Positions 1,198-52,393 of a DNA stretch of 64,000 nt are shown here, piece after piece. This DNA comes from Craspedostauros australis (Eukaryota; Bacillariophyta; Bacillariophyceae; Mastogloiales; Achnanthaceae): assembly GCA_026770025.1 (NCBI GenBank), contig JAMXDE010000045.1:186001-250000 (forward strand), written 5' to 3'. A program made the position numbers and the translations under genes. Positions within the stretch are counted from its first letter, which is position 1, and the number at the start of each line of letters is the position of its first letter. The notes beneath the pieces were generated by a model that had not been told where the DNA came from, did not search any database, and saw only the letters and a list, made by a program, of their open reading frames with translations.

Positions 1198-2343
1198 ATG
1201 AATCTCACCCAGACCGTTATGAACGCATCGATGGGATGCGTGAACCCCATCGTCGACGGACGGCTTACGGGGACCAGTTGTGGCGAAGGACACGCCGACT
1301 TTGGATTTGAAGAAGGCACAGCATGGACTGGCTACGAGGATGGCCCTGAAGCACCACCGCCACCGCTCTTCGATGTCATCATCGGACCCTTTGGCTGGGC
1401 AGTGCTCATCGTCGTCTCGATGACCCTGTCCCTGATGATCTTCAACAACTGTGATCTCAATATCCCCCCGACCAAGCTTACACGTCTGCTCGGCATCATC
1501 AGCCTCGCCTACAGCATGTTCGCTTCAATCCCGTTCCTGAACTACCTCCGGACCGGGAAGAGCGCGGCCGCTTCGGTGCCAAACAATGGCGACAGCGTCC
1601 GAATCCACATCCATGCATTCGTCATGGTGGTGTGGCTTGTGATCCAAACATTCCTCATCACGACTGCGATCTGCGGGAGGTATCGCCTTCACAAGCGCAT
1701 CGGGCGGTATGCCCTCAATGTGCAACTCCCGCTTACAGCATTGGAGAATATGCTGAACGCCGGGATCCTTTTCCTGCCCAAACTGGCGGGCCTGGCACAG
1801 GCCCATCGTTGGCCTCAGGTGACCACACATCCTTCGGCGTGGCAGGCACTCATCTACGCCTTGCCATATTCCGCCGCTCTCTTGACGCCAGAATTAATCC
1901 TCGTCTATGGATACCTGGCCACCAACATTTACGAGAAGGTGGAGGGACGTGAGCTCCGCCAGCTGCAGAAGAACCTGCATGCCTACTATATGACGAATGC
2001 CATCCTCACTATCATGTCCACCGGCAGCATCAGGCATATCTTCGAGGTTGTGTACGAGAGCAGTGGATGCCCACGATCGTTGCATGAGGCGATCTCCGCC
2101 TACGTCCAGCACAATAGCGGCCAACTTCAAGCGATTCTATACCCAATCTTCATGTCGCTGATTGCGGCGACTTTGCCACTGAAGGTCCGCGTCGGGCCAG
2201 CGAGAGTTCCTGGCGTCGTCTTCGGATATTACGTCTTCGTGATGAACGCGTATGCCATGGTCGTGACATCGGCTCTATTCGGCTTCCCTCTTGTCTTCCG
2301 CTGCAATCCACATGGTGTTGAGGCATTGCTCGCAGGGGCCTAG
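1198..2343 (+). CDS. Multipass membrane protein A (paralogue of 36780-37958)
   Basis: A 381-residue protein with several hydrophobic segments, after an N-terminus of about 60 residues without one. The segment IHIHAFVMVVW and the following RLHKRIG recall uncharacterised bacterial membrane proteins with an HxHA...W...Q...HRRxG signature, where His residues sit at helix ends; the actual activity is unknown. A diverged paralogue lies 35 kb away on the same strand. The two align through LHK-x-x-G, the (P/S)KL-x-x-LAQ stretch, the LHxxYMT...STG-x-IR helix and the SSGCP/LTGCP loop. I chose the ATG at 1198 because it matches the paralogue's start; an in-frame ATG at 1027 would add 57 residues of unremarkable sequence. 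No intron is needed. Function is not assigned. Confidence 0.75.
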   Translation: MNLTQTVMNASMGCVNPIVDGRLTGTSCGEGHADFGFEEGTAWTGYEDGPEAPPPPLFDVIIGPFGWAVLIVVSMTLSLMIFNNCDLNIPPTKLTRLLGIISLAYSMFASIPFLNYLRTGKSAAASVPNNGDSVRIHIHAFVMVVWLVIQTFLITTAICGRYRLHKRIGRYALNVQLPLTALENMLNAGILFLPKLAGLAQAHRWPQVTTHPSAWQALIYALPYSAALLTPELILVYGYLATNIYEKVEGRELRQLQKNLHAYYMTNAILTIMSTGSIRHIFEVVYESSGCPRSLHEAISAYVQHNSGQLQAILYPIFMSLIAATLPLKVRVGPARVPGVVFGYYVFVMNAYAMVVTSALFGFPLVFRCNPHGVEALLAGA

Positions 2344-5250: not shown

Positions 5251-8013
5251 TTAGGCTACTTGATCCGGCACAGGTCCGGCCCTGTGGGTTGCCCATCGCA
5301 TTGAAATCACAGGGTGTTTCGACACAATGCTCTTTGCGCGCTTTGTGGCGGCGCGATCTTTGTTGTCAGGGAAGATGAAACGACAGGACATGATGCTGTT
5401 GGTGGGGTCATGTTTCGATTTGTGCGATTCGTCGTGATCGTCGCCGTCGCCGTCGATGCGAATGATCGAAACCTGGCGGCTCCTGTTGGCATCATGATTG
5501 TCGGCGCTGTCGCCATTACCATTGCCACCGCCGTCGCCATGTGCGTGCTTGTCCACGAGCACAATCTTCGCGTGCACAAGCTCCATCGCCTTGTTGAGCA
5601 GGACCGGCGACACCGCCGCATCCAGAGCCGCGTAGACGATTTGATCCGAAGTCAACGGGCGACTGGACCAGTTGCTGGTCTGCTGTGCCTTGTTGAGCAC
5701 CTTGTTGTTCAAAAGAAACTGGCAGACCCGACCGAGCGAGGAGATGTGCACGCGAGCCTTCCGCGTGCGTCGCTTCGCCATCGCATTGCGAACAACCGTG
5801 GAGACTTCGATGACGGCGCTGTAGTGCTGGAATCCTGTCATGTGCGGAAAGCTGGAGGCTAGACGTTGTAGATCGCCGAATAGCTGGAAGCCCACCTTGA
5901 CCACTGCTTCGGAGGAAAAGAGTCGTGCCAAGGCATTTGACAGCATGGTCTCCGTATCGTTCATTTCGTGCGTTGGGGACAAGCATTGGCGACAAAGCAC
6001 CTGCGTGTCCAGGATGTACACCTTGTCGAGCGGGTGGAATGCCATCTGCAACACCGTCACTGGCTGCTCTTCTTCCGACGATTCCAACAGAAACGATGGC
6101 TTCCATTCGCAGTCGATGCCGATCAAAATAGGCGAGTTCGTTGCTTCTGCTGCTGTTGGGGTGGCGCACAACATGGTTTGAATGTCCTTCGCGAATGCTT
6201 GCACCGATTCCCAATCATCGACGACCTGTACCGCAGATTGTGCATCGGTCAAGATATCCGATAGCTGCAAGTATTCAATGTTGGGATCGATAGTTTTTGC
6301 ATTCGTGATCCGTTGCATTGCGGATACATTTGTGGTTGGTGGTGATGCTCTGAGGTGATTATCAGATGATGCTGCCGGCGCTGCGTTGTGTAATTCGTCC
6401 GGAATAATTTGAAAGCCAAAGACCACCAAATCAAGGCTGCGTTTATCGATCCAATGTTGCAAAGAGCTGCGATTGCCGACGTTGGTTTTGGCATCCACTA
6501 GGATCAGCTTGCCAGGCTTGAGGTGCTTGAGAGCCTTGGGTCCCTCCACGTCGCCGAGTTTTTGACACAGTGTCTTGCCCGCAATGAGCTGCACCGCCAT
6601 GTCTTGGCCGTCCACACCAGATCGCCATGGCAAGTCAAATGAATCCTTCTTGGTGCCTGTTCCCATGTAGTCGGGCGGCGCCAGATCCACGAAGACGAGC
6701 CGCTTCGCCAATTGACGGACTCCGTTGATGCGACCGAACAGCGTTGTGCGGTGTGATTGCAGTGGGATTGACTGCGGCGGATCGGCTTTGTTGGAAAGAA
6801 CTTGCGCGGCGATACGAGTGTGCGGTGGTTCCAGTGGAAAGAATGGCTTTGGTGATGGTGGTGGTGGTGGTGATGACGATGTTCGTGCTGACGATGATGA
6901 ATTGGAGAGCAGGTCATCACTGGGAGCTTGCTGCGCTTCAGTTGATCTGGAAGCCTTGGAGGTTGCCGTTCCACTGTTCTCGTTGCCACCACCGTCATCA
7001 TCGCTGCTGCTATCGTCGCTGTCGCTGTCGCTGCCATCACCAACGACGACATCGGCTACCTCCGTACCTTCCATACGCAGCAGAGTCTCCACGCGAATCC
7101 AGCATTGGCAGTCGGGATGACCGCCGCCGCTCACGAGCATGGTGCCTTCTGTGCACAATCCAGCATCGACGATCGTCCGTAACGCCTCAGGGGCATGACC
7201 CAGTGGCGGGACGGACATGGGGGGAAAGCCACATTCGGATTCCACCAGATCCGAGGACAGAAGTTGCACCGAGATACGTTCATCATCGTCATTGCGTTCT
7301 AGGTGCGATTCGACCTTGCGCAGGTCGACCTTTGCACAAGAGGGAGATATGATGACTACGACGCCTTGGCTTGTGACATTGAAGAGCAGTGAATTGATGG
7401 GCGTATTGGTGATGGTGATGTCCGTTTCGTCGTTGCTGTTGTTGTCGTTGTTGTTGTCGTCTTCGTCTTCACCTTTGTCTTCTGCGTCTATATCATTACC
7501 ATGCTTGCTGTCTCCATGCCGCAAATCGAGATGGATGTTCTGCTCTCCTTCGAAGGCAGCGATGGACCCGACGATGTTTTGCAGCCGTTGAAAGCGTTGT
7601 CAACGTTGCTCGTCCTGCTTTGGATCAGCTGAAAAGGTCAACGACAGAGGGTCGATCGTCCGCGATGGCTGGCTGGGCTGGTCTGTACCCGCAGTGTTGG
7701 TATCGTGTGTATCCTGAGACAAGGAGTCTGCGCGGGGATCGCAGTCGTTGGTCGAGTGTTTGCCATCCAGCGCGGTCATTTTTGTCGTCGTCGTCGACAG
7801 TGGTGCTGATTCCGATTCCGATGCTGCCAGTTGTCGACAGAGAGGAGATCGGGATGATGCGAAGGAGTGTGTTCGTACGCGTAGTTCGAAGGAATGGACA
7901 GACGCGATGAAACGGGGAGGTGGTGATGCTCGATGACCCGTGCTGGTGGCTCGAAAGGAGGTCGAAGCTACCAGAATTGTCCCTCCAATCGCGAACCCGA
8001 TTGTTCTCATCAT
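5251..8013 (-). CDS. YbaK-like editing domain + OB-like + DEDDy 3'-5' exonuclease fusion
   Basis: Reading down the minus strand, an N-terminus starting MMRTIGFAIGG has a hydrophobic core and STS|FRATS, a possible plastid presequence. After a Ser/Thr/Asp-rich linker comes a YbaK/ProX-type domain with CGFPPMSVPPLGHA (about 7190-7240), the family of tRNA deacylases acting on misacylated tRNA. A middle module (about 6440-6760) containing GRINGVRQLAKRLVFVDL looks OB-fold-like; that is inference. The last domain (about 5600-6140) is a DEDDy exonuclease: GIDCEWKP, VKVGFQLFGDLQRL and YAALDAA, as in RNase D, WRN and EXD2. The two open blocks are in one frame but interrupted by a single TGA at 7600-7602. 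No in-frame ATG precedes the YbaK domain downstream of it, so an unrecognised intron, a sequencing error or a nonsense change must be invoked. Exact exon structure is unresolved. Confidence 0.7.
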
Positions 8014-34872: not shown

Positions 34873-34879
34873 AAAAAAA
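34873..34879 (-). terminator. RNA polymerase III oligo-T terminator
   Basis: Seven T on the minus strand, three bases after the end of the tRNA 5' half. For a normal tRNA gene such a run follows the acceptor stem; here it follows the anticodon-loop half, as expected for a permuted gene. Confidence 0.85.
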
Positions 34880-34882
34880 GAG

Positions 34883-34960
34883 TCGTAGTCAGACGCCTTG
34901 CCGTTGGGCCAACAGGTCTTCCGCAAACCTGCCCGGGATTCGAACCCGGAATCTTCTGAT
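34883..34960 (-). tRNA. Circularly permuted tRNA-Arg(ACG)
   Basis: The 3' half (34925-34960) is transcribed before the 5' half (34883-34918), with six bases between. Reordered, every arm pairs. Acceptor GACCTGT/GCAGGTT has 7 pairs, two of them G-U. The D arm has A14, G18, G19 and A21. Anticodon stem TCTGA/TCAGA is perfect, with loop CTACGAA giving anticodon ACG (wobble A, probably inosine, reading CGU/C/A). The variable loop has 5 nt, and T stem CCGGG/CCCGG carries loop TTCGAAT. The break lies between positions 37 and 38, where canonical tRNA introns sit. A TATA-like box lies 31 bp upstream and a T7 terminator follows. Maturation would require end joining in the anticodon loop, then opening at the acceptor end. 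Position 73 reads T, which is unusual. Known permuted tRNAs occur in red algae, prasinophytes and an archaeon. Confidence 0.88.
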
Positions 34961-34990
34961 AACCATTCCTACAAAGCTGCCTCCAAATAG

Positions 34991-35000
34991 AATTTTTATA
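34991..35000 (-). promoter_or_regulatory. TATA-like element of the tRNA gene
   Basis: TATAAAAATT on the minus strand, 31-40 bases before the first tRNA base; a position compatible with upstream pol III initiation. The internal A and B boxes are present but in reversed order. Confidence 0.55.
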
Positions 35001-36779
35001 CTTTGAAATACGGCAAAACAAAACATAATTCTTGTGTTCTTGTTCGATTTCGCACCGCTTCGCTTCCCGGTCGTGATCATCAGCGCAGACCACACACGTC
35101 GCACGAAGTGACGGCGACGCACGTCGACATATTTGTGTGACCTCGTCGGTAGTGATGCAATGTGCGATAGTAGAGTATTGGAGAGCTATATTGCGCAACA
35201 ATTGACAGTACCGTTCCATCTGTAGACCTACCGCTCTCTTCGTCCTTGCGTAACCGGGTCGAGCCTACCGCCCCATTGTCTGCGAAACCGAAAGCACCAA
35301 TCAGAGGACGCTGGTGCCACACAGCATCGCGCTTGCAGTCCTTCCCAGACGCGCGCTGTGCGTTCAACTGCATTGTTCGGAGCAGTCCCCTATGGTACCT
35401 ACCTATGGTGGTGGTATGATAGGATGGTGCTAGTGAACGATGTCGTTGCGTTCATCGCCCGCTGTCATGAAATTCAACGATCCCTTGGCAGTCGAATCAT
35501 CGCCGATCGTCCCAATCGGCGAGGCGATCCTGACGAGCGCTGAAGGTAGAATCAAATGACCTTCGAATCACAAGTTTCGAGTGGGGCGATCATTCCGAGG
35601 TTCGGGTTGTGCACGTGCGATGGGGAACGATATTGAGAGTGAAATGCGCTTGGAATAGGCACCTTCGAGGGCAACTTGTCGGGTCGTCTCCATTCTTACT
35701 TCCATATATGTAGTTGGATGGATCGCGCTAGCAACTGCGGCGATCCTCTAACACTTGCGACTACTGGGATCGCCGTCGACTTCTCTTTGGTCTTGTGCGG
35801 ATCAAACAGCACGCCTCTTTGTCGAAACCCTTTGTCGAAACCCCTTTGTGAGTTCGAACTTGTCCCTGTTTCGTATACAATCATCCCACTTCGACATAGA
35901 TGTTAGCGATCATTCCTACTAGTATGCAGATTTCCCAAAGTTCGGGACAGAGAGATTGTTCCGAAAGCAGTCCTGGCGATGTGCGATGTGCGATGCCAGG
36001 ATCGCAAATTCCAAATCGGAGAAAATTGAAAAACAGTCATCGCACAACATTCGAAAAGCTTGATTCCACATCGCACTCATGCGTGTGCCGCCTATTCCTT
36101 GTCGCTCATACGAGTGCTACCTCGATATTCTCCATCGCAGCCTATGGATATCATTGAGTTATTTATAATCGCACTCTCTTCCTTTTTGCATCAAGATCCG
36201 GCCTCTTGATTACACTCTTCCTTCTCTATCTCCTTCTTCCGCTTTCTCTCTCTTCCTGTCTCGTGACATCCGATAAATTCTGCGCAAACTTGATGATTCG
36301 AATAGTTGCAAACAGGGTGCCATCGTGGGAAAAGTGCGTTGTCCAAGAGCATCGATGTCAAAAGCACCAGCGAATGTGGCGGTGCCGATCGATTTGCCAC
36401 ATCGCAAGAAAGAGCGAGATGAATTGCTCACAATTTGCAAATCTCGAGCCAATCCCAACGTCAACCGACTCGTACCTAGACCACGTTACATCAACAAGAT
36501 CTCGAACCATACTAATACACATAGCAGACACAGGCATAGCCAAACGCAAGCACATATGTGAGTGAAAATTGAAGTGACAGTACGAAAGATCCCTGGCATC
36601 TATTCTCGTTCCTGATATTGCTTCAACTTTGGTATAATATAATGCGATTCTACTATTATGTTACTGCTAATATTGCTACAAAACAATGCTGTCATAATCC
36701 TCACCTTCCATTTGATGCCCGCACTTCACGTCTCCTCGCTGTCTTCACTCTCTTTCTCATCTCCACAGAATACGCCACG
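35001..36779. other. Intergenic region upstream of membrane protein B
   Basis: No supported gene. A pyrimidine-rich stretch ending in CTCCACAG at 36769 looks like a splice acceptor eleven bases before the proposed start of membrane protein B, so a leader intron is possible. A short duplication (GTCGAAACCCyTTTG) is at about 35820-35850. Confidence 0.45.
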
Positions 36780-37958
36780 ATGGAGCAACTCAAAAACACA
36801 TTCACTTATCACGATGCCGGATCGGGCATGCTCAATGCAACCCACCTGCGGTACTTCTCGGAGATCGAGAAGGGGATGAATTCCACCTACTCCACCTATG
36901 CCACCATGAACTACACTGGGACCTTCGCCAACGCATCGAAGACCGCGGCAACCGCTATGTCTCCAATAGCGGCAGAGGCTGCCGCGCGCATGTTCGTGCC
37001 CGTCCTGTCGTCCTCATGGTGGCTAGTTGGCACCATATTGGCGACTGCGGTGTCGCTATACACATACCACAACGTCACATTCCAGGTATCCTCCCGAACC
37101 ATCGCGTACGCGAACCTCCTTGCGAGCACCATCGCCACGGTGCCCTTCGCGGCGTTCATGATGTACAAACTGAGCTGGGCCGGATCTGCACCCGACGAAG
37201 CGCACCGCTTTATCATCGAGAACGTCCACCTCGTGTCGATGTTCGCCTGGGTGCTTTGCTCCTTCGCCATGATCCTCTCGATTTGCTTCAGATCCATTCG
37301 CCTCCACAAGGCGCTCGGTTGGCTTGCCATGAACATCCATTTGCCCTTCATCATCGTCGAGCTGTCTGTCAACGCAGGCCGTGCTTTCGTCCCAAGCAAG
37401 CTCATCGCCCTCGCTCAAGGGCATTGGCCGGATACAGCGGCGGATCCCACAATCTTACAATGGTCTGCGATGGCCTTGCCAATGATTGCTGCGCTCTCCA
37501 CACCTGCTATCATCGGCATGTTCTGGTGGTTCGGCCGATGCATCTACGACAAGAAGCGCTTCCCCAAGGCAGACATCCGGCACCGCCTTCATGTGCTGTA
37601 CATGACCATGTTGAACACGACTGTTTTCAGCACGGGGTTGATCCGCTGGCTTTTTCGCCTCTGCTTCAAGTTGACAGGATGCCCGATGTACAAAGATGAT
37701 ATCTTGTCGGTGTATGCCCAACACCTGGCCGGCAACTATAACGCCCTAATCTACATTCCAGCTTGCGGATTCATCTACGCAACACTTCCAAAGGAGATGA
37801 GAGTCGGTGATAACAAGGTCCGCAGCGTCCAGATCTCTTTCACAATCTACATGTGCCATGGACTGCTCCAGTTGCTGTCCACCTACTTGATGGACTTCAG
37901 CTTCTTTTACCGCTGCGATGCTGGTGCAGTCCAGGAATTCCTCGCGGCCAGAGTGTAA
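36780..37958 (+). CDS. Multipass membrane protein B (paralogue of 1198-2343)
   Basis: A 392-residue protein with the same arrangement as protein A: an N-terminal stretch with potential N-glycosylation sites (for example NATH, NYTG), then a chain of helices. Shared landmarks are RLHKALGWLAMN against RLHKRIGRYALN, SKLIALAQGHWP against PKLAGLAQAHRWP, YMTMLNTTVFSTGLIR against YMTNAILTIMSTGSIR, and LPKEMRVG against LPLKVRVG. B lacks the HIHAF pair of A but keeps a His at the equivalent helix start (NVHLVSMFAW). The ATG at 36780 agrees with A; upstream the frame stays open to 36618 without a better start. Identity is low enough that the duplication is old. Function unknown, possibly a transporter or redox membrane protein. 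Confidence 0.75.
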   Translation: MEQLKNTFTYHDAGSGMLNATHLRYFSEIEKGMNSTYSTYATMNYTGTFANASKTAATAMSPIAAEAAARMFVPVLSSSWWLVGTILATAVSLYTYHNVTFQVSSRTIAYANLLASTIATVPFAAFMMYKLSWAGSAPDEAHRFIIENVHLVSMFAWVLCSFAMILSICFRSIRLHKALGWLAMNIHLPFIIVELSVNAGRAFVPSKLIALAQGHWPDTAADPTILQWSAMALPMIAALSTPAIIGMFWWFGRCIYDKKRFPKADIRHRLHVLYMTMLNTTVFSTGLIRWLFRLCFKLTGCPMYKDDILSVYAQHLAGNYNALIYIPACGFIYATLPKEMRVGDNKVRSVQISFTIYMCHGLLQLLSTYLMDFSFFYRCDAGAVQEFLAARV

Positions 37959-38106: not shown

Positions 38107-38111
38107 AAACG

Positions 38112-38775
38112 TAATAACACATCGAGCACTCCAACTACACTCGTCTTGGTAGCATTCGAATGAGTCGTGTGGTATTCGTGTACCACAGGACGAATACTGA
38201 TGCAGTCACGAGACTCTTCGTGTGTGATGAATCGTAATGTCTTGATATCCGCAATTGCCGCAACTCCCATGCGGGATCGCTTTCTCGTCTCACAGACTGA
38301 CTCGCAATTCAGATATATTGATTCCTCAATTCCACACCATCTTGTTGACACCTTGCAATTCAGATATATTGGTTCATCCAATAGATCTGAATAAGAGGTC
38401 CTCAATTGCACAGCTTCAGAATTATGGCAGTACTGGTCATCGTGGACCTGAACGTGCCATCTGATCTTGTCTTCACCTCTGTGCTTGCAAACATGCATTT
38501 CCTCCCACATGTGAATCCAACAGTGCAAGGCATCATTTTACAGCAGTATTGCTGTGTGCAACTTGTGCAATCTCATTGCATCATCATCATCATCTTGCAT
38601 TGCACTCTTCATGCTCACAATTCTGACGTCAACAGATCAGAATTGGGCCAGCTTTCATTAACTTAATCACCTACTTGAGCACACACACACAATACCAACC
38701 ATCTACATACTTCATTGTCGGATCTGATCAGTCTCTATTTGAAGTAAGTACCCTGTATTGTATTCTGTTCTATCA
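38112..38775 (+). repeat. 5' LTR (664 bp)
   Basis: Begins TAATAACACATCG and ends TGTTCTATCA. The opening TA instead of the usual TG is noteworthy; the boundary is fixed by the AAACG duplication. Short ORFs inside it recur identically in the 3' LTR. Confidence 0.95.
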
Positions 38776-39052
38776 GATTAACAGTCGCAATTCTCTACGT
38801 CCTGCGCTGAACGCGTGACCATCATTTCAAAGACTTTGTGACATTCGATAACGACCATCCTGCAACTCTCGTGACGACGTGAAGTTGCCTTCATCTCTGT
38901 GATTCAGCCATCGCTGCGCAGAACATAAGAGCCATTCGGCTTGTGCACACTCACCCATTCACTATTAGACGTATCCGTCAGTGAATTCTCTCTTTGCTTC
39001 TTCAGCATTCATCATCCCATCATTCGATATCGATCGCATTCGATCTATCGAC

Positions 39053-39213
39053 AACACAACAAACATACAAACACAGACAAACATCCAATCACAACCAAAC
39101 AGACATACAAACACAAACAAACAGACACATCAACAAATAAACAAACATACAAACACAAACAAACATACACACCAACAAATAAACAAACAAACAAATAAAC
39201 CAACAAACAAACA
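39053..39213. repeat. (ACAAACA)n simple sequence in the element leader
   Basis: AC-rich imperfect tandem just before the polyprotein ATG, with no cytosine-to-guanine balance; it is a low-structure 5' leader. Confidence 0.8.
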
Positions 39214-39221
39214 ACATCATC

Positions 39222-42200
39222 ATGACTACTCCCTCCTCCACCATCTCCGAAGCCGAGATCTTCAACCATGTTGTCAGGTCCGTGGGCATTGCTGACGATT
39301 CTGATGCCAGAAGTCTGCTTGACCAACAGGGCATACTCAGCATTGCCGACCTTCTTCTCCTCTCCAGGGAGGACCTACAGGCCTTCCAATACCAAGGTCT
39401 TGATGAGGATGGTGAAGCCTTTGTGTACGAACTCGATGCTCCTTGCATCCGTCGTATCCTCGCCCTTCCTCGCTGGTGGCAATATCAGGTTGACCCAACC
39501 TTCGTCACCTGGTACACCATCTCCCGCCATTCTCTTGCCGAGGCCATCGCATCGCCAATTGTCGCTCCAGCGGAAGCAGCAGCGGCGCGCGCAGCCACCA
39601 CAGCAGCCACCACAGCAGCAACTGCAGCAGCCACTGCAGCAGCTACTGCGGCAGCATCTTCAGCTCCAACACCTGATCCCATCACCTCAACCCCGGTCTC
39701 TTTGTCAGAATCCCGTCTCCAAGACTTCCGAAAGGGGATGAGACGCAACAGCGAGCATTTTCCCAAGCTCAAGGATGATCGATTCTTCCTATCCTTCCGT
39801 CGCACCTTCATGACGGTCGCAGCCTCCCAAGGTGTCTCCGATGTCCTGAACCCGGAGTACAAGCCTGCAGATGAGGACATGGTCCTCTTCCAAGAGCAGA
39901 ACACCTTTGTCTACTGCACCTTGGTACTCTCCCTGAAGACTCAGAAGGGTCAGAGATGCGTCCGGAAGCTCGAGGACACCATGGATGGACAGGCTGCATT
40001 TGCAGCCATGCTCTCTGAGTATACCACTGGCGTGACTGCATCCAATGCTGGGAAACATCTTCGCTCCATCCTCAACACCCTCAAACTAGACAAGGATTGG
40101 CGTGGCACTCGAGAGTCCTTCCTTGACTCGTGGTCCAACAAGGTGTACGATCTCGAAGTCATCCAAGATGACGAGGTTGATGCTGATCGCAAACGCGATT
40201 GGTTGGAGGAAGCCATCTCCCCAGACACCGAGCTCTACCGTGCCCTATTCGAGTCCCAGTACCTCGAGGCATCCCTTCATGCAATGAGCATTGATGGTGT
40301 CTCAACAGAGTTCACACTCGACTTCGAGCGTACTTTCGCGCTCGTACGCAGCCATGCTCAACGTCTCGACCGTGTCAAGCCTCGCGGACGTTCCAGTCGC
40401 AAGGTGCATAATGCCAAGCACTCCGGTGTTCGAGGCCAAGCACAGGCATGGAGCAAGGATAAGGATTACTCCAAGGATCCTCGTCCTCGTATCCCACGCG
40501 AGGAATGGATGAAGATGGAGCGATCTCAGCGTCAAGCATTCCTTGAAGCCAAGGGAAAATGGGATCCCAATCGCGGAAAGGGCGGACGTCAGCGCGCAGC
40601 CAACAAGGCAACTACCTCCAAGTCGGATGGGCATTCTGCAACTCCATCTGCCAATGCCGACACGACCACCACTCCTCCTGCTCAACCTGGAGATGCCATC
40701 AACCGCATGTTGGCGAATGCCAAGTCCACACCTTCCACTGACGAACCCATCCTGACCTACAAGGGTCAGACCTGGCGCCTTGCCAACCAGGCCATGGTCC
40801 GCTACGACTTCCACAAGACATCCAAAGCTCATCATGGATCTCTCGTCGACAGCGGTGCCAATGGTGGCCTGGCTGGTGACGATGTCCTCGTACTGTGCAA
40901 GACTGGTCACACAGCGGATGTCAATGGCATTGGCGATTCTGCGATTGCCAACCTTGACATTGGGACTGTTGCTGGACTTGTCGACACCACCGAAGGTCCC
41001 ATCATTGCTGTATTTCACCAATACGCTCTATACGGAAAGGGGAAGACCATCCATTCTTCCAACCAACTCGCTTCCTTCGGCATCGACGTCAATGAGCGGC
41101 CACGACACCTGCCAGGCGGTCGACAGACCATCATCACAACCGATGGTCGCGTCATTCCACTCTCGATTCGTCATGGTCTGTCCTACATGGACATGCGTTG
41201 TCCCACTCGTGATCAGCTCGGCAAGTACCCTCACGTCGATTTCACAGCTGACTCTGTGTGGGATCCCTCTGCCCTCGATCAAGAGCTCGACATCTCCGAT
41301 GTCAGCGGAGCCAACAACGAATCTTCCATCCCAATTTCTGGACAAGAGCTCGACGTGTTCGTCACTGATGGTGAACCAACACGTGGCAAGACCTCGGACC
41401 ACTCAGGAGGCATTGAGCTCAGCTCTGCTCCTGTTGACTATGAGGCCCTTCGTCCTCATTTCGGTTGGATCCCGGCTCGCCGTGTCCGCGACACATTGCG
41501 ATGCACCTCGCAGTGGTACCGGACGGCGGAGCGCTTTTCCATGCGCAAACACTTCAGGACACGATTTCCGGCTGCCAACGTCGATCGTCTCCATGAAGTT
41601 GTGGCTATGGATACTCTCTTTTCGGACACTCCTGCACATGATGACGGCATTGCTGGACACGGCGGATGCACCATGATGCAGATCTACGTCGCTCTGCAGT
41701 CTCGATTCACAGCGGGGTTCCCCATGTCTTCCGAGAAGCAAGTTTCCAACACCTTCCTCGACTTCATCCGACACCATGGTGCGCCCGACCTTCTCATGTC
41801 GGATAACGCCAAGTCCGAGATTGGCTCCAAGGTTCAAGAGATCCTCCGTCAATACGCCATCAAAGACCATCAGAGTGAGCCCGAGCATCAGCATCAGAAC
41901 GGTGCGGAGCGGCGTATTCAAGACGTCAAGCGGACCACCAATGGGATCATGGACCGCACTGGGACACCCGCCAAGTTTTGGTTGATCTGCACCCAGTACG
42001 TCATCTCTCTGCTCAACCACATCGCGCAGCGCACGGTTGGCAGCATCACTCCTTTCCAGGCCGCATACGGGCACCGACCAGATGTGAGCAAGTTCCTTGC
42101 TTACCGATGGTGGCAACCTGTATACTTCCGAGTCGACAAGCCAGGCTTCCCCAGCCATTCCAAGGAGAGGCTGGGACGGTGGGCCGGTCCATGTTTTCAC

Positions 42201-44717
42201 AAGGGTGACGATCTCACTTTTTGGATCCTTGATGGCGCGTCGCAACGGCTTCTTCCTCGATCCACCATTCGCCCAGCGGACGATCCATCCACCAAGAACT
42301 TGCGTGCAGACTTTCCCCTTCCCATGGTTGGGGAGGACGAGGATGCAGCGACAGAGGCATCAGACCATGGGGAGTACGAGGATGACATCCCTGACTCTCC
42401 TGAGGCCGATCCTGTTGTTCACACTCTCTCCGACGCCATTCTTTTCGACTCCATGAGCACTGCATCAGGAACCATGGACAAGGGAGCGGTTTCTGTCCCC
42501 AAGTTCACCCCAGAGGAGCTCATTGGTATGTCCTTCATTCACCATCAAGATGGACACAAGGTCCGTGCCGAGGTCATCCGCAAGGTCAATGATATTGACG
42601 CGGACAACCACCAACGCATCAAGATGATTCTCTCTCTCAATGATGGGGAGACCAATGATCTGATGGCCTACACTGAGCTGTCAGACATCATCGAACAGCA
42701 ACAGGCAACGGGTGAAGCCGATGGCACATGGACCTTCATTGACATCATCGGTCATGAGGGCCCACTCTCATCCTCATCATCATCTTACAAAGGATCAAGA
42801 TACAACGTCAAGGTCCAATGGGATGATGGATCTACATCCATGGAACCCCTCTCTGTCATGATACAGGATGATCCCGCGACATGTGCTGCATACGGTCGGA
42901 CACATGGTCTACTCCAAGAGCCAGGATGGAAGCGTCTCCAGCGTCTCTCCCAACGGCAGACTCGCATGAGACGTGAAGTCCATGTTGCCAAGTCTCGCAC
43001 CTCCGGTTCGGTCCCTACCTACCAGTTCGGAGTCCAAGTGCCCAACAATCATCGTGAGGCCATGACCCTTGACCAACAGAACGGCAACACCTTCTGGGCT
43101 GACGCAGAGAGGAAAGAGATGGACCAACTCTTTGAGTATGGTACCTTCGAAGTCCTCGGACACCTCTCCAAGCCTCCAGATGGACACCAGAAGATCAGAC
43201 TCCAATGGGTGTATGCTGTCAAACACGACCTCCGCCACAAAGCGAGATGTGTCGCTGGAGGGCATCTAACACGACCATGCAAGGACATGTCGTATGCGGG
43301 TGTGGTCAGCCTTCGATCACTGCGCCTCGCTCTACTGGCTGGTGAGCTCAACGGTCTCACCACAATGGTGGGTGACATCGGGAACGCATATCTTGAGGCA
43401 TATACGCAGGAGAAGATCTGCTTCATCGCTGGTGAGGAATTTGGAGAGCATGCCGGTAAGATGATGCGTATCGTCAAGGCACTCTACGGCCTGCGCACAT
43501 CAGGCGCTCGGTTTCATGAAGCTCTTGCAGATACCCTCAGAGATGTCGGATTCGTCCAATGCCGCTCTGACCCAGACGTATGGATGCGAGATGCTACTTC
43601 CCACTGGGAGTACATCTGTGTCTATGTCGATGACCTGATGGTCACCATGAAGGATCCCCAATCCTTTTTCGACCTTCTGATCTCCAAGTATGGCTACAAA
43701 CTCAAGGGAGTTGGGCCAGTGCAGTACCATCTCGGTGCTGACTTCAATCGAGATCCAGATGGAACCATGAAGATCAGCCCCCGATCCTACATCAAGCGGA
43801 TTCTGATCAACTACGAGCGCATGTTTGGAGAGCTGCCAAAGAAGGCAAGCTGCCCCCTCGATAAGGCAGACAGCCCAGAGCTCGACACATCCGAAGAGCT
43901 CTCCGACGTGGACAAGAACAAGTTCATGTCTATCATCGGCACCCTCCAATGGTGCGTCACGCTTGGCAGATTTGACATATCTGTTGCAGTGATGACACTC
44001 TCCAGATTCCGAGCCTCACCGCGCAAGGGCCACCTCGATCGAGCCAAGAGAATCTATGGCTATCTCCGCAAACATCAAGATGGGGCCATCCGCTTTCGCA
44101 CAGGAATACCACAACATGAGGAGCACTTCGAGGTACCACAGCAGGATTGGCTGTACTCCGTGTATGGCAACACATCAGAAGAAATCGCGAAGGACGCTCC
44201 TGTGCCAAGAGGCAAGATTGTCAGAACCACTTCCTTTGTTGATGCCAACCTCATGCATTGCAAGGTAACCGGTCGATCGGCCACTGGAGCTCTTCATTTT
44301 GTCAACCAAACACCCATCGAATGGTTCAGCAAACGACAGGCCACCGTTGAGACCGCAACCTATGGGTCTGAATTCGTCGCGGCCCGTCAAGCCACCGAAC
44401 ACATCATATCTCTTCGTCTTGCTCTGAGAGAGATGGGCATCCCTCTTGATGGTCCCAGTTGGCTGTTTGGTGACAACCAATCAGTCATAACTTCGTCCAC
44501 CGTGCCCATGAGCATGCTGACCAAGAGACACAATGCACTTGCATACCATCGTGTCCGTTCCGCCATCGCATCTGGAACCATCCACTTCATCAAGATCCCA
44601 GGAACACAGAATGTGGCTGACATCTTGACAAAGTTCCTACCGTGGGCAGCATTCTGGCCTCTCATCCAACCAATCCTATTCTGGAGAGGTGACACCATCC
44701 GTTCACACAACAAGTGA
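39222..44717 (+). CDS. Copia gag-pol polyprotein
   Basis: One long frame of 1,831 residues. The N-terminal ~400 residues are the gag part, preceded by an Ala/Thr-rich stretch; I see no CCHC zinc knuckle. The protease has SLVDSGANGG near residue 541. The integrase core lies at about 785-930. Between integrase and reverse transcriptase, near residue 1190, a segment with YNVKVQWDDGSTSMEPLSVM looks chromodomain-like. The reverse transcriptase is at about 1330-1560 with YVDDLMV, and RNase H at about 1670-1800. Gag and pol are in one frame, as in many copia elements. Confidence 0.95.
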   Translation: MTTPSSTISEAEIFNHVVRSVGIADDSDARSLLDQQGILSIADLLLLSREDLQAFQYQGLDEDGEAFVYELDAPCIRRILALPRWWQYQVDPTFVTWYTISRHSLAEAIASPIVAPAEAAAARAATTAATTAATAAATAAATAAASSAPTPDPITSTPVSLSESRLQDFRKGMRRNSEHFPKLKDDRFFLSFRRTFMTVAASQGVSDVLNPEYKPADEDMVLFQEQNTFVYCTLVLSLKTQKGQRCVRKLEDTMDGQAAFAAMLSEYTTGVTASNAGKHLRSILNTLKLDKDWRGTRESFLDSWSNKVYDLEVIQDDEVDADRKRDWLEEAISPDTELYRALFESQYLEASLHAMSIDGVSTEFTLDFERTFALVRSHAQRLDRVKPRGRSSRKVHNAKHSGVRGQAQAWSKDKDYSKDPRPRIPREEWMKMERSQRQAFLEAKGKWDPNRGKGGRQRAANKATTSKSDGHSATPSANADTTTTPPAQPGDAINRMLANAKSTPSTDEPILTYKGQTWRLANQAMVRYDFHKTSKAHHGSLVDSGANGGLAGDDVLVLCKTGHTADVNGIGDSAIANLDIGTVAGLVDTTEGPIIAVFHQYALYGKGKTIHSSNQLASFGIDVNERPRHLPGGRQTIITTDGRVIPLSIRHGLSYMDMRCPTRDQLGKYPHVDFTADSVWDPSALDQELDISDVSGANNESSIPISGQELDVFVTDGEPTRGKTSDHSGGIELSSAPVDYEALRPHFGWIPARRVRDTLRCTSQWYRTAERFSMRKHFRTRFPAANVDRLHEVVAMDTLFSDTPAHDDGIAGHGGCTMMQIYVALQSRFTAGFPMSSEKQVSNTFLDFIRHHGAPDLLMSDNAKSEIGSKVQEILRQYAIKDHQSEPEHQHQNGAERRIQDVKRTTNGIMDRTGTPAKFWLICTQYVISLLNHIAQRTVGSITPFQAAYGHRPDVSKFLAYRWWQPVYFRVDKPGFPSHSKERLGRWAGPCFHKGDDLTFWILDGASQRLLPRSTIRPADDPSTKNLRADFPLPMVGEDEDAATEASDHGEYEDDIPDSPEADPVVHTLSDAILFDSMSTASGTMDKGAVSVPKFTPEELIGMSFIHHQDGHKVRAEVIRKVNDIDADNHQRIKMILSLNDGETNDLMAYTELSDIIEQQQATGEADGTWTFIDIIGHEGPLSSSSSSYKGSRYNVKVQWDDGSTSMEPLSVMIQDDPATCAAYGRTHGLLQEPGWKRLQRLSQRQTRMRREVHVAKSRTSGSVPTYQFGVQVPNNHREAMTLDQQNGNTFWADAERKEMDQLFEYGTFEVLGHLSKPPDGHQKIRLQWVYAVKHDLRHKARCVAGGHLTRPCKDMSYAGVVSLRSLRLALLAGELNGLTTMVGDIGNAYLEAYTQEKICFIAGEEFGEHAGKMMRIVKALYGLRTSGARFHEALADTLRDVGFVQCRSDPDVWMRDATSHWEYICVYVDDLMVTMKDPQSFFDLLISKYGYKLKGVGPVQYHLGADFNRDPDGTMKISPRSYIKRILINYERMFGELPKKASCPLDKADSPELDTSEELSDVDKNKFMSIIGTLQWCVTLGRFDISVAVMTLSRFRASPRKGHLDRAKRIYGYLRKHQDGAIRFRTGIPQHEEHFEVPQQDWLYSVYGNTSEEIAKDAPVPRGKIVRTTSFVDANLMHCKVTGRSATGALHFVNQTPIEWFSKRQATVETATYGSEFVAARQATEHIISLRLALREMGIPLDGPSWLFGDNQSVITSSTVPMSMLTKRHNALAYHRVRSAIASGTIHFIKIPGTQNVADILTKFLPWAAFWPLIQPILFWRGDTIRSHNK

Positions 44718-44742
44718 TATCATCGACATACGCTTCGGGGAG

Positions 44743-45406
44743 TAATAACACATCGAGCACTCCAACTACACTCGTCTTGGTAGCATTCGAATGAGTCGTG
44801 TGGTATTCGTGTACCACAGGACGAATACTGATGCAGTCACGAGACTCTTCGTGTGTGATGAATCGTAATGTCTTGATATCCGCAATTGCCGCAACTCCCA
44901 TGCGGGATCGCTTTCTCGTCTCACAGACTGACTCGCAATTCAGATATATTGATTCCTCAATTCCACACCATCTTGTTGACACCTTGCAATTCAGATATAT
45001 TGGTTCATCCAATAGATCTGAATAAGAGGTCCTCAATTGCACAGCTTCAGAATTATGGCAGTACTGGTCATCGTGGACCTGAACGTGCCATCTGATCTTG
45101 TCTTCACCTCTGTGCTTGCAAACATGCATTTCCTCCCACATGTGAATCCAACAGTGCAAGGCATCATTTTACAGCAGTATTGCTGTGTGCAACTTGTGCA
45201 ATCTCATTGCATCATCATCATCATCTTGCATTGCACTCTTCATGCTCACAATTCTGACGTCAACAGATCAGAATTGGGCCAGCTTTCATTAACTTAATCA
45301 CCTACTTGAGCACACACACACAATACCAACCATCTACATACTTCATTGTCGGATCTGATCAGTCTCTATTTGAAGTAAGTACCCTGTATTGTATTCTGTT
45401 CTATCA
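44743..45406 (+). repeat. 3' LTR (664 bp)
   Basis: Same length and, where compared, the same sequence as 38112-38775; ends TCTATCA immediately before the AAACG target duplication. The purine run CGGGGAG just before it is the likely polypurine tract. Confidence 0.95.
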
Positions 45407-47231: not shown

Positions 47232-50200
47232 ATGTCTCCAGCTCCAAGCAACAACGCCGGGTTGCCCCGCGATGGGCAGCTGGACAAATCGCTCAAGACC
47301 GTGTCACGCAGCGACGCCATCGACTACTCGGGTGATGATGGCAGCAACAGCAGCAGTGCCAGGGGTTTCCCAGCCACCTCGAGCACTGGTAACGGAACCA
47401 CCATGTTCGGTGATCACGAAAGTCACCCTGAATTCAGCACCACCGCCGACAGCAACGACGATGAAATGCAGGCCGTTCGCAATGTTGCACGAAAGGATAC
47501 GTTCCAGGTCCGCTTGTGGCGTCTCGTGACAACAGCAGCATTGCTCGCAACTGGAGTCGCTGTCACTTGGACGACGTACCACGTGAGTGCAGTTCCGATC
47601 TGATGCAGTGAAGGGATGAGCAACAACGCAAGGGAGGAGATGGCAGTGAGTCTGTCTCTACCAGCGAAGCATCCTTCACACACCCAATATTGGTTTGACA
47701 GCGAGTGTGCGACTATGGTGCTCGCACATCAGCGTTGCCCATCCGAACACCCTCCATATCCCAACCGCTCTGCTTATATCATCTGTACGGCGCGATTTCA
47801 TCTCATCTCTTCCCTCTCCCTTCTCGAACCATACTACTCGTACGAGCCTCTTGCGATCGCGATTTTCTTGCTCTGATCTTCCTTGCCTTCGTCCTTCTGC
47901 ACATTTGGTTGCCTTCCTTGCTTCCGTCACCTCTCAATCAGTTCCTCGATCAACAACAAACAGACACCTTCGAGACAGCGGTAAGTGTGTCGTGTCTGGC
48001 GGCAGCAAAAGAGGCCAAAACTTGTATCGTAGAATACCTAGCGCACAGCACTGCATCATCATAATGATACCGCTCCGTTCAATTGTCCTTCCCACTCGGC
48101 TCGGACGGTGCTCAGTATGGCTCTACGATACTCTATTGTGTACGGACACTTGCTCTTTGCACCCACGAGCTCACGGATCTCCTCCAACCTCTGCCTGGAT
48201 AGCGCATCTCCTTCGCGTTCTCACATTCGTTCACTCTCCGTCTCTCACTACTCGGCCCAACACAATCTCCAATGCCCCCATACAATTCACACCTCCATAC
48301 GGCCACATATCGATACATTCCATACAATCCATGCACCAGTTTGAGCAATTCGCTAGAACTGTTGGAGATGCCGCTGTTGACCAGCAGCTCAACCTCCGGC
48401 ATGCCTACATTGGTCTTGCCAACCACGTGTCGAACTACGTCGTGAGCACGAACGCAAGTTGGCCGGACGTCACCATCCCGTTCTTCCGAACAACCGCAGA
48501 AACGGTCCTGGAGTACTCCGGCACAGAGATTGTGACTCTGCTTCACATGGTAAAAAACGAAACATACGATGCCTGGGTGGAGCATAGCATCAAGGACCAT
48601 GGTGCCGTCGTGAAAAATGCCAACCTCGAAGAGAATGGCAACCTCGACGACTTCGCCCCAGAAAACTTTCATCCCTACGTGACTAAGTTCGACCTCTTCG
48701 CGGGCGGTTTCGTGCCGGACGACGCTGGACGAGAACGCCAGTACGTGCTCTGGGAGTATGCGCCGGCACCATTCGATTTCAACTTCCTCAACTGGAATGT
48801 GATGTCCGCCGAAATCATCGGGACTCCCCTGATGGGACGCAGTCTGGTTGCACTGAGAACTGAAACTCTGTTCCAGAATGCGGGCTCATTCAACAGCTTC
48901 GCATTTAAGAAGGAAGAGCATGAAGCAATGCACGCCAGATTGCCCGGTTCCAAGGTCAGCCACCCGCACACCTTCGCCTATCACCCAGTGCACGAGGTCG
49001 CTTCGGATCCAGACTCCGAAATCGTCGGTATTTTGATTGGTGTAACAGCATGGGACACTGCCTTGAACCAGCTGCTGCCCAATAACGTGCAGGGAATCAC
49101 AGCCGTGATTTCCAACACCTGCAACCAAACGTTCACATACAAGATTGATGGAGAGGATGCCTACTTCCAGGGATACGGTAAGTGCGAACATCAAATCGCT
49201 GGTGTTTCTGCTGGTGTCTTTACACGTTGAAATCAATCTCTTCGGCGGGCTTCATTTGTGTATGCTCGATTCGCGTACATGGTAGCCTGCTTTGCTCACC
49301 TCAATGTACTATCTACTTGCACCATGTGCTTGTGCGTACTATATTTGCTCAACTCTATCCATCCGTCCATTCGAAATGCATTCTCCTCATGCATTCGTGC
49401 TGGTGCCGACTCGTTGCTGACGACCTCACCAAATCGAACAAATCGAACAAACAACTATTGTACCAGTCGACACGCATGATACGAAGTACGACAAATACGA
49501 GAAGGTGCGCCTGCTCACAACGTCCGATCATCCGGACTTCGCCAAGACACCCGGGCATTGCATCTACACGATGCATATCTACCCATCCAGGCAATTCGAG
49601 GAGGCGTACGACACCTTCCTCCCCGAAACATTCGCGATCGTCATCTTCTGCGCATTCGTTGGGGTGATTGCGATCTTCTTCGTCTACGACATGTTCGTCA
49701 ACCACCGCAACGAGAAGCTCATCGAGAATGCCGCGCGCTCCAACGTCATCGTGTCAACGCTCTTCCCCAGTACTATTCGAGATCGGCTCATTTCTGACAA
49801 GAACACGCACGGCAACACAGCGAACATACGCATCTCCAACCTCAAGAGCTTCTTGCATGGAGAGGCGGATGCAAACGCAGGAGCGGGGCAGCCGTTGGCC
49901 GACCTGTTCCTCGAGACGACGGTCCTATTTGCCGATATTTCCGGCTTTACTGCGTGGAGTTCAGTTCGAGGTGAGTGTGGCAGCACATGGGAACAACAAC
50001 CGTGACGAAGGGATTGTGGTCATTTTGTTTGCAATACTTCAACTGAGGCGATCTATCCTTTCACTAACCTTCGCATTCATTCCAACATCATCACCATCGT
50101 CATCATCATCATCATCATCATGCCCGTACACACAAAATCAACATCAAACTTCAACTACAAAAGAACCGACGCAAGTCTTCTCATTGCTCGAAACCGTTTT

Positions 50201-52393
50201 CTCTCAGTTTGATCAAATCGCCAAAGCCAGGCGAGTGTTCAAGGTTGAGACTGTTGGGGACTGTTACGTGGCCGCCACCGGTATTCCGGAACCAAAGAAG
50301 GATCACGCCACCATCATGGTCCGTTTCGCACATGATATCCTCAAGCGGATGGATGTCCTTGTGAAGGGGTTGGAAATCACGCACGGTCCGGACACAGCCG
50401 ATCTCTCCCTGCGCATCGGCATGCACTCAGGACCGGTCACGGCCGGAGTGCTGCGCGGGGAACGTGCACGATTTCAGCTGTTTGGCGACACCATGAACAC
50501 CGCATCTCGCATCGAAAACACCGGCGAGATTGGCCGCATCCATGTATCGAGAGAAACGGCGGAATGCGTGCGTCGGTGCGGCAAAGGATACTGGCTGGTG
50601 AAACGAGAGGAGAAGGTATACGCCAAAGGCAAGGGCGATATGCAAACGTGAGTTCGTGCGCTACTACTGTGACTGCCTTGAGTTCGCTCGAGAACTTTGA
50701 GGGTGCAGCAGATTACCAGCAACGCACTGTCATATTCTATCGCACATCGTATATGCTTCTGATACTGATCCTGATACTGAAATTCGCACGTTCATTTCGC
50801 CTCCCCATCGCGGGAGACTCTCGCACCCCTTTCCAATCTCACCCATTCATCTATCTATCCATCAATCCATCCATCCATCGACACATGCTAAAATTTCACA
50901 CTGTGCATCGGGATCATCTCTTCTCTCAATCACACTCTCGCTACATACGTATATCTCTCAGATACTGGATTGCTCGCTCCCTTTCGCGTCCCAAAAACGG
51001 TTCCGTGACTGGTAGCTGCAGCAGTGACATGGATGATGCCCACGATTCATTGGACAATGCAGAAGACCTTTCCTTGCTCGGCATCCAGCAACGAGTTAAA
51101 TCCAGCGGCCTGGATGAAAAACAGCTGCGGCTGGTGGATTGGAATGTGGTGATGCTCACCCAGATCCTGCAACAAGTCGTCGCTCACAGACAAGCAGTCG
51201 GCCCCCAAGCACCTGCCATTTCAAGAAAGAAGGCGGACGAAGGCTCGCAGATTCAGCCGGCTATATTCATTCCGCTGGATGAAGTCTGCGAGATCGTCCA
51301 TCTTCCAGAATTCAATCAGAAGGCCGCCCACGGCTCGGCATCGGCCAAGGGTGCCGCTCCAGCCATCGACCAGAGAGTTGTCGACCAGCTGCGATCCTTC
51401 GTGGAGGCCATTGCGGCCATGTACCAGGACAATCCTTTTCACAACTTCGAGCACGCATCGCACGTGACCATGTCCGTCATCAAGCTGCTTGCCCGCATCG
51501 TCGCCCCGTCCGATCTCGACTTCGCCGACAAAGGCAACGCAGCAGTCCCTGTTAGCAGCGGCAACAGCATCGCCAGTGGTAAAAGCAGCGCCACCAGCGG
51601 CAATAGGAGCGCAAAGCACGTGGCTGCATCGCTGCACGACCACACCTACGGCATCACGTCGGATCCGCTGACGCAGTTCGCATGCGCATTCTCCGCCATG
51701 ATTCATGACGTCGATCATCCAGGCGTCCCGAATGCCCAACTGATCAAGGAAAAGACGCGCGTTGCGGCCATCTACGACAACCGATCCGTTGCCGAACAGA
51801 ACTCTTTGGTCCTGGCTTGGGATTTGTTCACATCCGACCAGTACGCCGACTTCCGCAACTGCCTTTGCGGCAACGAACAAGATCTGCAGCGCTTCCGACA
51901 GCTCGTTGTCAACGGAGTCATGGCGACAGACATCGTGGACAAGGATCTGAAGCAGCTGAGGAACGGCCGCTGGGACAAGGCCTTCTCGGACAACACTTTC
52001 GACGAATCCACCAAGGACGCCACCGACCGCAAGGCGACCATCGTCATCGAGCACTTGATTCAAGCCTCGGACGTTGCTCACACAATGCAGCACTGGCACG
52101 TGTACCGCAAGTGGAACGAGCGCTTCTTCAAGGAATGCTACGCGGCCTACCGCAACGGCAGATCTGAAACGAACCCGGCCGACGGCTGGTACAAAGGGGA
52201 GATGGGCTTCTTCGACTTCTACATCATCCCGTTGGCGAAGAAGCTGAAGGAATGCGGCGTGTTCGGCAAGTCCAGCGATGAATACTTGAACTACGCCATC
52301 GCCAACCGCGAGGAATGGGAACGCAGGGGGGAAGAGCTGGTGGCGACGATGACCGATGCGATGGATCAAAGCATTCGCAGCAACGAAGCATGA
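47232..52393 (+). CDS. Receptor-type nucleotide cyclase fused to cyclic-nucleotide phosphodiesterase
   Basis: CDS is join(47232..47582,47942..47980,48340..49177,49467..49970,50164..50647,50962..52393), 1,215 residues. All five introns are GT-AG and keep frame; exon 2 is a 39-nt microexon (FLDQQQTDTFETA). Order: cytosolic tail, TM1 (about 92-113), extracellular domain of ~340 residues, TM2 (about 463-486, TFAIVIFCAFVGVIAIFFVY), class III cyclase domain (about 545-735), class I PDE (about 850-1190). The cyclase has metal Asp in FADISGF and VGDCY. Glu in FKVETVGD favours GTP, but the second base-selecting position is Gln (RFQLFGDTMN), neither the guanylyl Cys nor adenylyl Asp. The PDE has HNFEHASHV, HDVDHPGVPN and SDVAHTMQHWH metal ligands. 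One protein can therefore make and destroy the second messenger. A related bifunctional enzyme is reported as pheromone-responsive in Seminavis. Confidence 0.93.

What the first reader, a model, noticed from the sequence alone, without database searches (positions are those of the whole stretch)
34883..34960. Circularly permuted tRNA-Arg(ACG) in a putative diatom
The T arm and 3' acceptor strand lie upstream of the D arm and 5' acceptor strand, so the gene is inside-out. All conserved positions (T8, A14, G18 G19, A21, T33, T54 T55 C56, A58, C61) are present after reordering, both stems around the anticodon are perfect, and the break is exactly at the canonical intron site 37/38. A decayed pseudogene would not keep this. 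The six-base intervening sequence is very short. Permuted tRNAs are established in Cyanidioschyzon, some prasinophytes and Thermofilum; I know of none in diatoms.
Basis: partly seen in the sequence, partly recalled or inferred. Interest (0 to 1): 0.93.

Follow-up and report, generated by a model that had tools for sequence, protein, structure and literature searches.

The report
Inside-out arginine tRNA gene, probably diatom
A eukaryotic gene, most likely from a diatom, carries the two halves of an arginine transfer RNA in reversed order, with signals that would fit the cell splicing the transcript into a circle and reopening it; such genes are known in a few other algae and one archaeon.

Summary
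Confirmed, on the minus strand, 34960 down to 34883: the 3' half (A38-U73), a 6-nt linker, then the 5' half (G1-A37) of one tRNA-Arg(ACG). Joined, they give a full cloverleaf (acceptor 7/7 including two G-U, anticodon stem 5/5, T stem 5/5). A tRNA score applied in permuted order gave 60.4; the best of 600 shuffled windows gave 18.4.

Flanks fit expression: TATAAAAA 40 nt upstream, seven Ts from the fourth base after the break, and leader/trailer pairing that can form a bulge-helix-bulge with cuts at 37/38, one central pair short of strict. A different pairing at the junction folds 5.8 kcal/mol better. Best reading: a type II circularly permuted tRNA gene, probably functional; expression untested.

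Lineage: position 20 is C. A 2022 survey reports C20/U20 in diatom nuclear tRNA-Arg, A20 in the other photosynthetic groups surveyed. A diatom is likely, not proven.

Against: U73 with G1-U72 is unusual for arginine, and ordinary copies elsewhere cannot be excluded because no genome is held. New member of a known kind, in a lineage for which my searches listed no report.

The parts
34993..35000 (-). TATA-like box TATAAAAA, 40 nt upstream of the first base of the 3' half
   Evidence: 3 copies on the minus strand and 0 on the plus strand in 64 kb
34961..34970 (-). leader AGGAATGGTT: outer BHB strand AGGA, unpaired A, central strand TGG, bulge TT before the cut
   Evidence: geometry; the lowest-energy fold keeps AGGA paired but pairs the centre differently
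34925..34960 (-). 3' half of tRNA-Arg(ACG), A38 to U73, with the B-box/T arm (GGTTCGAATCCCGGG at 34932-34946)
34919..34924 (-). intervening linker GCGGAA; in the predicted fold its last A pairs with U73, leaving a 5-nt loop
34883..34918 (-). 5' half of tRNA-Arg(ACG), G1 to A37, with the A box (TGGCCCAACGG) and C20
34884..34886 (-). anticodon ACG
   Evidence: position counted coordinates
34873..34882 (-). trailer CTC followed by TTTTTTT: first C is the third base of the 3' bulge, TCTT is the outer BHB strand, T7 (34879-34873) the predicted Pol III terminator

Best explanation
A type II (37/38) circularly permuted nuclear gene for cytosolic tRNA-Arg(ACG) in a stramenopile alga, most likely a diatom. 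Inferred pathway: RNA polymerase III starts downstream of the TATA box and stops in the T run, giving leader - 3' half - linker - 5' half - trailer. The halves pair as in a normal tRNA, and leader and trailer form a relaxed bulge-helix-bulge. Splicing endonuclease cuts GA|C and TT|A, and ligase joins A37 to A38, making a circle closed by the 6-nt linker. RNase P and tRNase Z remove the linker and CCA is added. A34 becomes inosine so that CGU, CGC and CGA are read. Shown: gene order, cloverleaf, possible BHB pairing, TATA and T7. Inferred: transcription, splicing, circle, charging.
For: Permuted tRNA score 60.4 against a maximum of 18.4 in 600 shuffled windows and 1.9 / -3.6 elsewhere on the two strands. 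Acceptor 7/7 and anticodon stem 5/5; 0 of 188 foreign 5' halves and 0 of 188 foreign 3' halves pair as well with the window's halves. BHB: 3 of 4 central pairs, 4 of 4 outer pairs, Watson-Crick C32-G(-3); a fraction 0.0016 of 200,000 random leader/trailer pairs do as well. TATAAAAA 40 nt upstream and T7 from the fourth base after the break; most C. merolae permuted genes have a TATA-like box within 50 bp and a T stretch. One match only in the window, within 3 mismatches, to the T-arm motif and one to the D-arm motif, so no trace of an ordinary tandem gene beside it. C20 matches diatom nuclear tRNA-Arg. [quoted passage not shown]
Against: No RNA data. The drawn BHB has one A-C mismatch and evaluates at -26.0 kcal/mol against -31.8 for the lowest-energy fold, which keeps the anticodon stem and outer helix but pairs the centre differently. 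The precursor fold is not unusually stable (z -1.00; 31 of 200 shuffles fold as well). U73, where A/G73 is described for arginine, with a G1-U72 pair; U73 can also pair with the last linker base. The target scores below all 34 held-out bacterial/phage tRNA-Arg(ACG), and only 15 of 154 training tRNAs score lower. No relative with this order was found, but eukaryotic genomes could not be searched.
Confidence: 0.8

Rival explanations
1. Young non-functional relic: two tandem intron-containing tRNA-Arg genes lost their outer halves, leaving the inner halves by accident; the partial BHB is inherited intron structure and nothing is made from it.
For: Tandem duplication with loss of the outer halves is the published origin model. 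U73 and G1-U72 look slightly off. The BHB is imperfect and not the lowest-energy pairing. The flanks could be old intron sequence.
Against: A run of seven Ts inside an intron would be expected to stop Pol III, so it fits the permuted layout better than an inherited intron (inference). TATA box 40 nt upstream. Acceptor, anticodon and T stems intact. No second match to either half's core motif in the window.
Confidence: 0.13
2. A tRNA-mimic RNA of the YrlA (bacterial Y RNA) kind, used linear and never spliced; YrlA has a tRNA-like domain with T arm, acceptor hairpin and D arm in this same order.
For: The only Rfam match to the locus at E up to 1 is YrlA, 23.0 bits, E 0.014.
Against: Far below the family cut-off of 69 bits. 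A full anticodon stem-loop with U33 and anticodon ACG lies at the break, with T7 downstream, in a eukaryotic setting. Of the two YrlA-like viral RNAs seen here (32.0 and 27.3 bits), L058 carries outer stems beyond the module and L093 lacks U33 at the corresponding place (read).
Confidence: 0.03
3. Chance assembly of tRNA-like motifs, or the junction of two ordinary neighbouring tRNAs.
For: ARAGORN on doubled segments hits 112 of 1000 shuffles. In phage tRNA arrays, junctions of two complete tRNAs reach 57.2 on the permuted score.
Against: No ordinary tRNA in the window. 600 shuffles reach 18.4 at most. Six of the eight best array hits examined are junctions of two ordinary tRNAs and have 5 of 7 acceptor pairs, against 7 of 7 here.
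Confidence: 0.01
4. The gene is as described but the organism is not a diatom (another stramenopile, a fungus or another protist).
For: C20/U20 also occurs in fungi, Microsporidia, Endomyxa and some other stramenopiles. No genome or taxon is given.
Against: Guanylate cyclase next to PDE, a combination reported as a bifunctional GC/PDE in the diatoms Seminavis and Pseudo-nitzschia; leader sequences with a phenylalanine after the cleavage site like those of red-type complex plastids (seen by eye, motif recalled), one of them on the DUF4336 protein.
Confidence: 0.2

Closest known systems
Type II (37/38) circularly permuted tRNA genes of Ostreococcus and Micromonas, and the Bigelowiella natans nucleomorph (Maruyama et al. 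2010, through the review PMC3978253)
   Same: Break at 37/38, BHB at the termini, linker of 5-64 bp, no extra intron in most
   Different: Table 1 of the review lists no Arg(ACG) gene there; green-lineage organisms; junction BHB described as the hBH form, whereas here both bulges and both flanking helices can be drawn but the central helix has 3 of 4 pairs
Permuted tRNA genes of Cyanidioschyzon merolae (Soma et al. 2007, through PMC3978253)
   Same: TATA-like box within 50 bp upstream of most, T stretch downstream, linkers from 7 nt, six of eleven are type II, BHB present
   Different: Red alga; also other break sites (20/21, 50/51, 59/60); the permuted Arg there is Arg(CCT), type IV
Permuted tRNA genes of Auxenochlorella (PMC12636532, passages seen)
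   Same: tRNAscan-SE gave an incomplete set; permuted genes with reversed halves were then detected
   Different: Green alga; which tRNAs are permuted was not visible to me
YrlA / bacterial Y RNA tRNA-like domain (RF02553)
   Same: T arm, acceptor hairpin and D arm in the same permuted order
   Different: Bacterial; not spliced into a tRNA as far as I know (recalled); score here 23.0 against a cut-off of 69 bits

Membership tests
Circularly permuted tRNA gene, type II | 3' half upstream of 5' half on one strand, separated by an intervening sequence at the acceptor ends | tested here: met
   coordinates; linker 6 nt, published range 1-74
Circularly permuted tRNA gene, type II | Rejoined halves form a complete tRNA with the conserved bases | tested here: met
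Circularly permuted tRNA gene, type II | Sequences at the junction can form a BHB (strict or relaxed) with cuts at 37/38 | tested here: met
   Relaxed form only: bulges TT|A and GA|C, outer helix 4 of 4, central helix 3 of 4 pairs, C32-G(-3) pair. Strict form not met, and a rival pairing is 5.8 kcal/mol better. Published members include relaxed forms
Circularly permuted tRNA gene, type II | Upstream TATA-like or AT-rich stretch and downstream T stretch, none in the linker | tested here: met
Circularly permuted tRNA gene, type II | Circular RNA intermediate and mature, charged tRNA | not testable with these tools
   no RNA data
Diatom cytosolic tRNA-Arg | C20 or U20 in place of A20 | tested here: met
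   D loop AACGGCA gives C20; rule from PMC8975779
Diatom cytosolic tRNA-Arg | Sequence match to known diatom tRNA-Arg(ACG) genes | not testable with these tools
   no eukaryotic genomes or tRNA database on hand
YrlA (RF02553) | Covariance score at or above 69 bits | tested here: not met
   23.0 bits

The most novel reading that the evidence does not exclude
A diatom depends on this permuted gene as its only, or its main, source of tRNA-Arg(ACG), so that reading CGU/CGC/CGA codons requires a circular RNA intermediate. Because the tRNA carries the diatom-type C20, it would be an independent, in-lineage origin of gene permutation in stramenopiles, not an inheritance from the red or green algal endosymbiont.
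Probability: 0.3. Interest if true: 0.75.

Novelty: new member of a known kind. Interest (0 to 1): 0.6.

Why it matters
In what I saw, permuted tRNA genes are reported for one red alga, four prasinophytes, two chlorarachniophyte nucleomorphs, Auxenochlorella and one archaeon. A case in a diatom nucleus would carry the phenomenon into a further supergroup. The C20 mark would suggest that it arose there from the host's own tRNA-Arg, favouring repeated recent origins over an ancient relic. It would also mean that tRNA sets of diatoms predicted by standard tools can lack genes that are in fact present.

Tried and rejected
Whole-genome tRNA census: not possible, no genome is held. Search for the same permuted Arg pattern in IMG/VR and GTDB contigs: 0 and 0 stretches; the 5'-half pattern in IMG/VR: 0. 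Those collections are viral and prokaryotic, so this says little about algae. Phage BLAST: 221 records matched, none over 80% of the query; the 20 listed matched 24-28 nt of the 3' half, mostly under annotated tRNAs. ARAGORN on doubled segments was dropped as the main test because shuffles also hit. Fold stability as evidence was dropped: z -1.00. Primer-binding region of the nearby Copia element against this tRNA: longest shared word 6 bases, no link seen. A PDB search with the DUF4336 protein, made for lineage hints, matched nothing. YrlA rejected on score and anatomy. Absence of A20 was first counted against the gene; the diatom survey turned it into support.

Full report
OBSERVATION. The feature lies on the minus strand. 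Reading down from 35000: TATAAAAA (35000-34993), leader ending AGGAATGGTT (34970-34961), 3' half ATCAGAAGATTCCGGGTTCGAATCCCGGGCAGGTTT (34960-34925), linker GCGGAA (34924-34919), 5' half GACCTGTTGGCCCAACGGCAAGGCGTCTGACTACGA (34918-34883), trailer CTC, then TTTTTTT (34879-34873). The raw window gives no tRNA with ARAGORN and no Rfam match at gathering cut-offs. The joined halves are called tRNA-Arg(acg). Acceptor stem 7/7 with G-U at 1-72 and 7-66; D stem three pairs plus C13/A22; anticodon and T stems 5/5.

CHANCE. A score was trained on 154 real tRNAs from IMG/VR loci, with the 34 Arg(ACG) tRNAs held out (for the set of 188, for the model), and applied in the order 3' half - linker 0-60 - 5' half. 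The target scores 60.4. The best hit on the plus strand is 1.9, and the best minus-strand hit away from the locus is -3.6. The best of 600 dinucleotide-shuffled windows, both strands, is 18.4 (mean 0.45, sd 4.6). Of the 154 training tRNAs, 15 score lower than the target; of the 34 held-out Arg(ACG) tRNAs, none does. So it is tRNA-like by a bacterial/phage yardstick, in the lower part of the range. The simpler test, ARAGORN on doubled segments, is weak: 0 of 10 shuffled windows hit, but 112 of 1000.

A tougher background is natural tRNA arrays. Over 1.087 Mb of IMG/VR loci (244 sequence-strands) the best permuted score is 57.2, close below the target. Of the eight best hits examined, six are junctions of two adjacent ordinary tRNAs with 5 of 7 acceptor pairs, and two are YrlA-like RNAs with 7 of 7. 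The window locus has 7 of 7 acceptor and 5 of 5 anticodon-stem pairs and no ordinary tRNA in the window. Pairing each of its halves with 188 foreign halves never gave 7/7 with 5/5, although 257 of 35,156 cross pairs among the foreign halves did; 150 of the 188 real tRNAs have 7/7 with 5/5.

SPLICE JUNCTION. With the usual tRNA numbering, the bases before A38 are AGGA-A-TGG-TT|A38 and those around A37 are G36 A37|C-TCTT. The central helix pairs C32-G, U33-G and A34-U, with a C35/A mismatch; each bulge is three bases; the outer helix AGGA/TCTT is 4 of 4, including one G-U. C32-G(-3) is a Watson-Crick anticodon-intron pair. Of 200,000 random leader/trailer pairs from the window, a fraction 0.00198 reach 3 of 4 plus 4 of 4, and 0.00157 also have the Watson-Crick pair; with the real trailer kept, 0.0027 and 0.0022. 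The geometry is the published one, but I looked for it on this sequence, so the fractions are descriptive. Against it: the drawn BHB evaluates at -26.0 kcal/mol and the lowest-energy fold at -31.8; the latter keeps the anticodon stem and the outer helix but pairs the centre in another register. The precursor's stability is unremarkable (z -1.00; 31 of 200 shuffles fold as well). I therefore call the BHB relaxed. The sequence alone would allow the join one base to either side; the BHB drawing picks 37/38.

EXPRESSION SIGNALS. TATAAAAA occurs three times on the minus strand and never on the plus strand in 64 kb; one copy is 40 nt upstream of the 3' half. Runs of at least seven Ts occur twice per strand; one starts at the fourth base after the break. 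In C. merolae a TATA-like sequence lies within 50 bp upstream of most permuted genes and a T stretch downstream (PMC3978253, section read). A T7 run inside an intron would be expected to stop Pol III, so it is more easily understood as a terminator fitted to the permuted layout than as inherited intron sequence (inference).

LINEAGE. The D loop is AACGGCA, giving C20. Igloi 2022 (PMC8975779; abstract, introduction, results and discussion read) reports that nuclear tRNA-Arg of 15 diatom species carry C20 and/or U20, whereas the surveyed other photosynthetic groups (dinophytes, cryptophytes, euglenophytes, haptophytes, red and green algae, eustigmatophytes, pelagophytes, brown and yellow-green algae) have A20. 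C/U20 is otherwise mainly fungal and microsporidian, with other scattered cases. The paper's Table 2 also lists A beside C/U for two diatoms. A second review repeats the exception (PMC9976931, passages). This makes a diatom the best guess, explains why A20 is lacking, and argues that the permuted gene was made from the host lineage's own tRNA-Arg. Supporting context: a guanylate cyclase domain (49668-50651) next to a PDE (50564-52393), known as a bifunctional GC/PDE in Seminavis and Pseudo-nitzschia (PMC5485032, passages); leader sequences with F after the cleavage site (by eye; motif recalled). None of this is proof of species.

MECHANISM. Following the pathway published for algal permuted tRNAs (PMC3978253 sections 5, 6 and 8 read): transcription from the TATA box to the T run; endonuclease cuts at the BHB; ligation of 37 to 38, giving a circle; removal of the linker by RNase P and tRNase Z; CCA addition. 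Here the linker is 6 nt and U73 can pair with its last A, leaving a 5-nt loop. B. natans has 5-bp linkers and Thermofilum one of 1 bp, so this is tight but has precedent. U73 is unusual for arginine (A/G73 described), though arginine identity in yeast does not need base 73. All steps here are inferred.

KNOWN OR NEW. The review lists 34 permuted genes in six algae and one archaeon. Later additions seen are the Amorphochlora nucleomorph (PMC4494063 passages) and Auxenochlorella (PMC12636532 passages). Searches pairing permuted tRNA with diatom (5 listed of 6), stramenopile (1), Phaeodactylum (2 listed of 3), 'circularly permuted' with diatom and tRNA (12), PlantRNA and related terms (10 listed of 11) and 'permuted tRNA genes' alone (31 listed of 33) showed no title or abstract start that reports one in a diatom. 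I opened passages of PMC12636532, PMC13353863, PMC4090602, PMC8450103, PMC11528492, PMC10085705, PMC4494063 and PMC4929541 and saw none there. (30 listed of 3,083) was uninformative. The library holds only open-licence papers, so this is not proof of absence. The gene is a new member of a known kind, in a lineage for which I found no report and, against Table 1 of the review, a new isoacceptor (Arg-ACG).

LIMITS. No RNA data, no genome, no eukaryotic relatives. The main open question is whether ordinary tRNA-Arg(ACG) genes exist elsewhere in this genome.

Noticed in passing
window 38111-45406 (+): Recent Copia-type LTR retrotransposon: two identical 665-nt LTRs (38111-38775 and 44742-45406), one uninterrupted 1831-aa frame with RVT_2, possible 4-bp target duplication AAAC.
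   Followed up: partly
window 5251-7524 (-): One reading frame joins a 3'-5' exonuclease domain (PF01612) and an aminoacyl-tRNA editing domain (PF04073), to my knowledge an unusual pairing.
   Followed up: no
window 49668-52393 (+): Guanylate cyclase domain next to a cyclic-nucleotide phosphodiesterase in overlapping frames, probably one interrupted gene resembling the diatom GC/PDE.
   Followed up: partly
L058:2986-3062 (-) and L093:1647-1720 (+): Permuted tRNA-like modules near viral tRNA arrays with 7 of 7 acceptor pairs; weak YrlA matches (32.0 and 27.3 bits, cut-off 69), so possibly divergent viral Y RNAs.
   Followed up: partly
window 1027-2343 (+) and 36618-37958 (+): Two membrane-protein-like frames are paralogues (31% identity over 327 columns, E 1e-46) and match no Pfam family at E 0.001.
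   Followed up: partly
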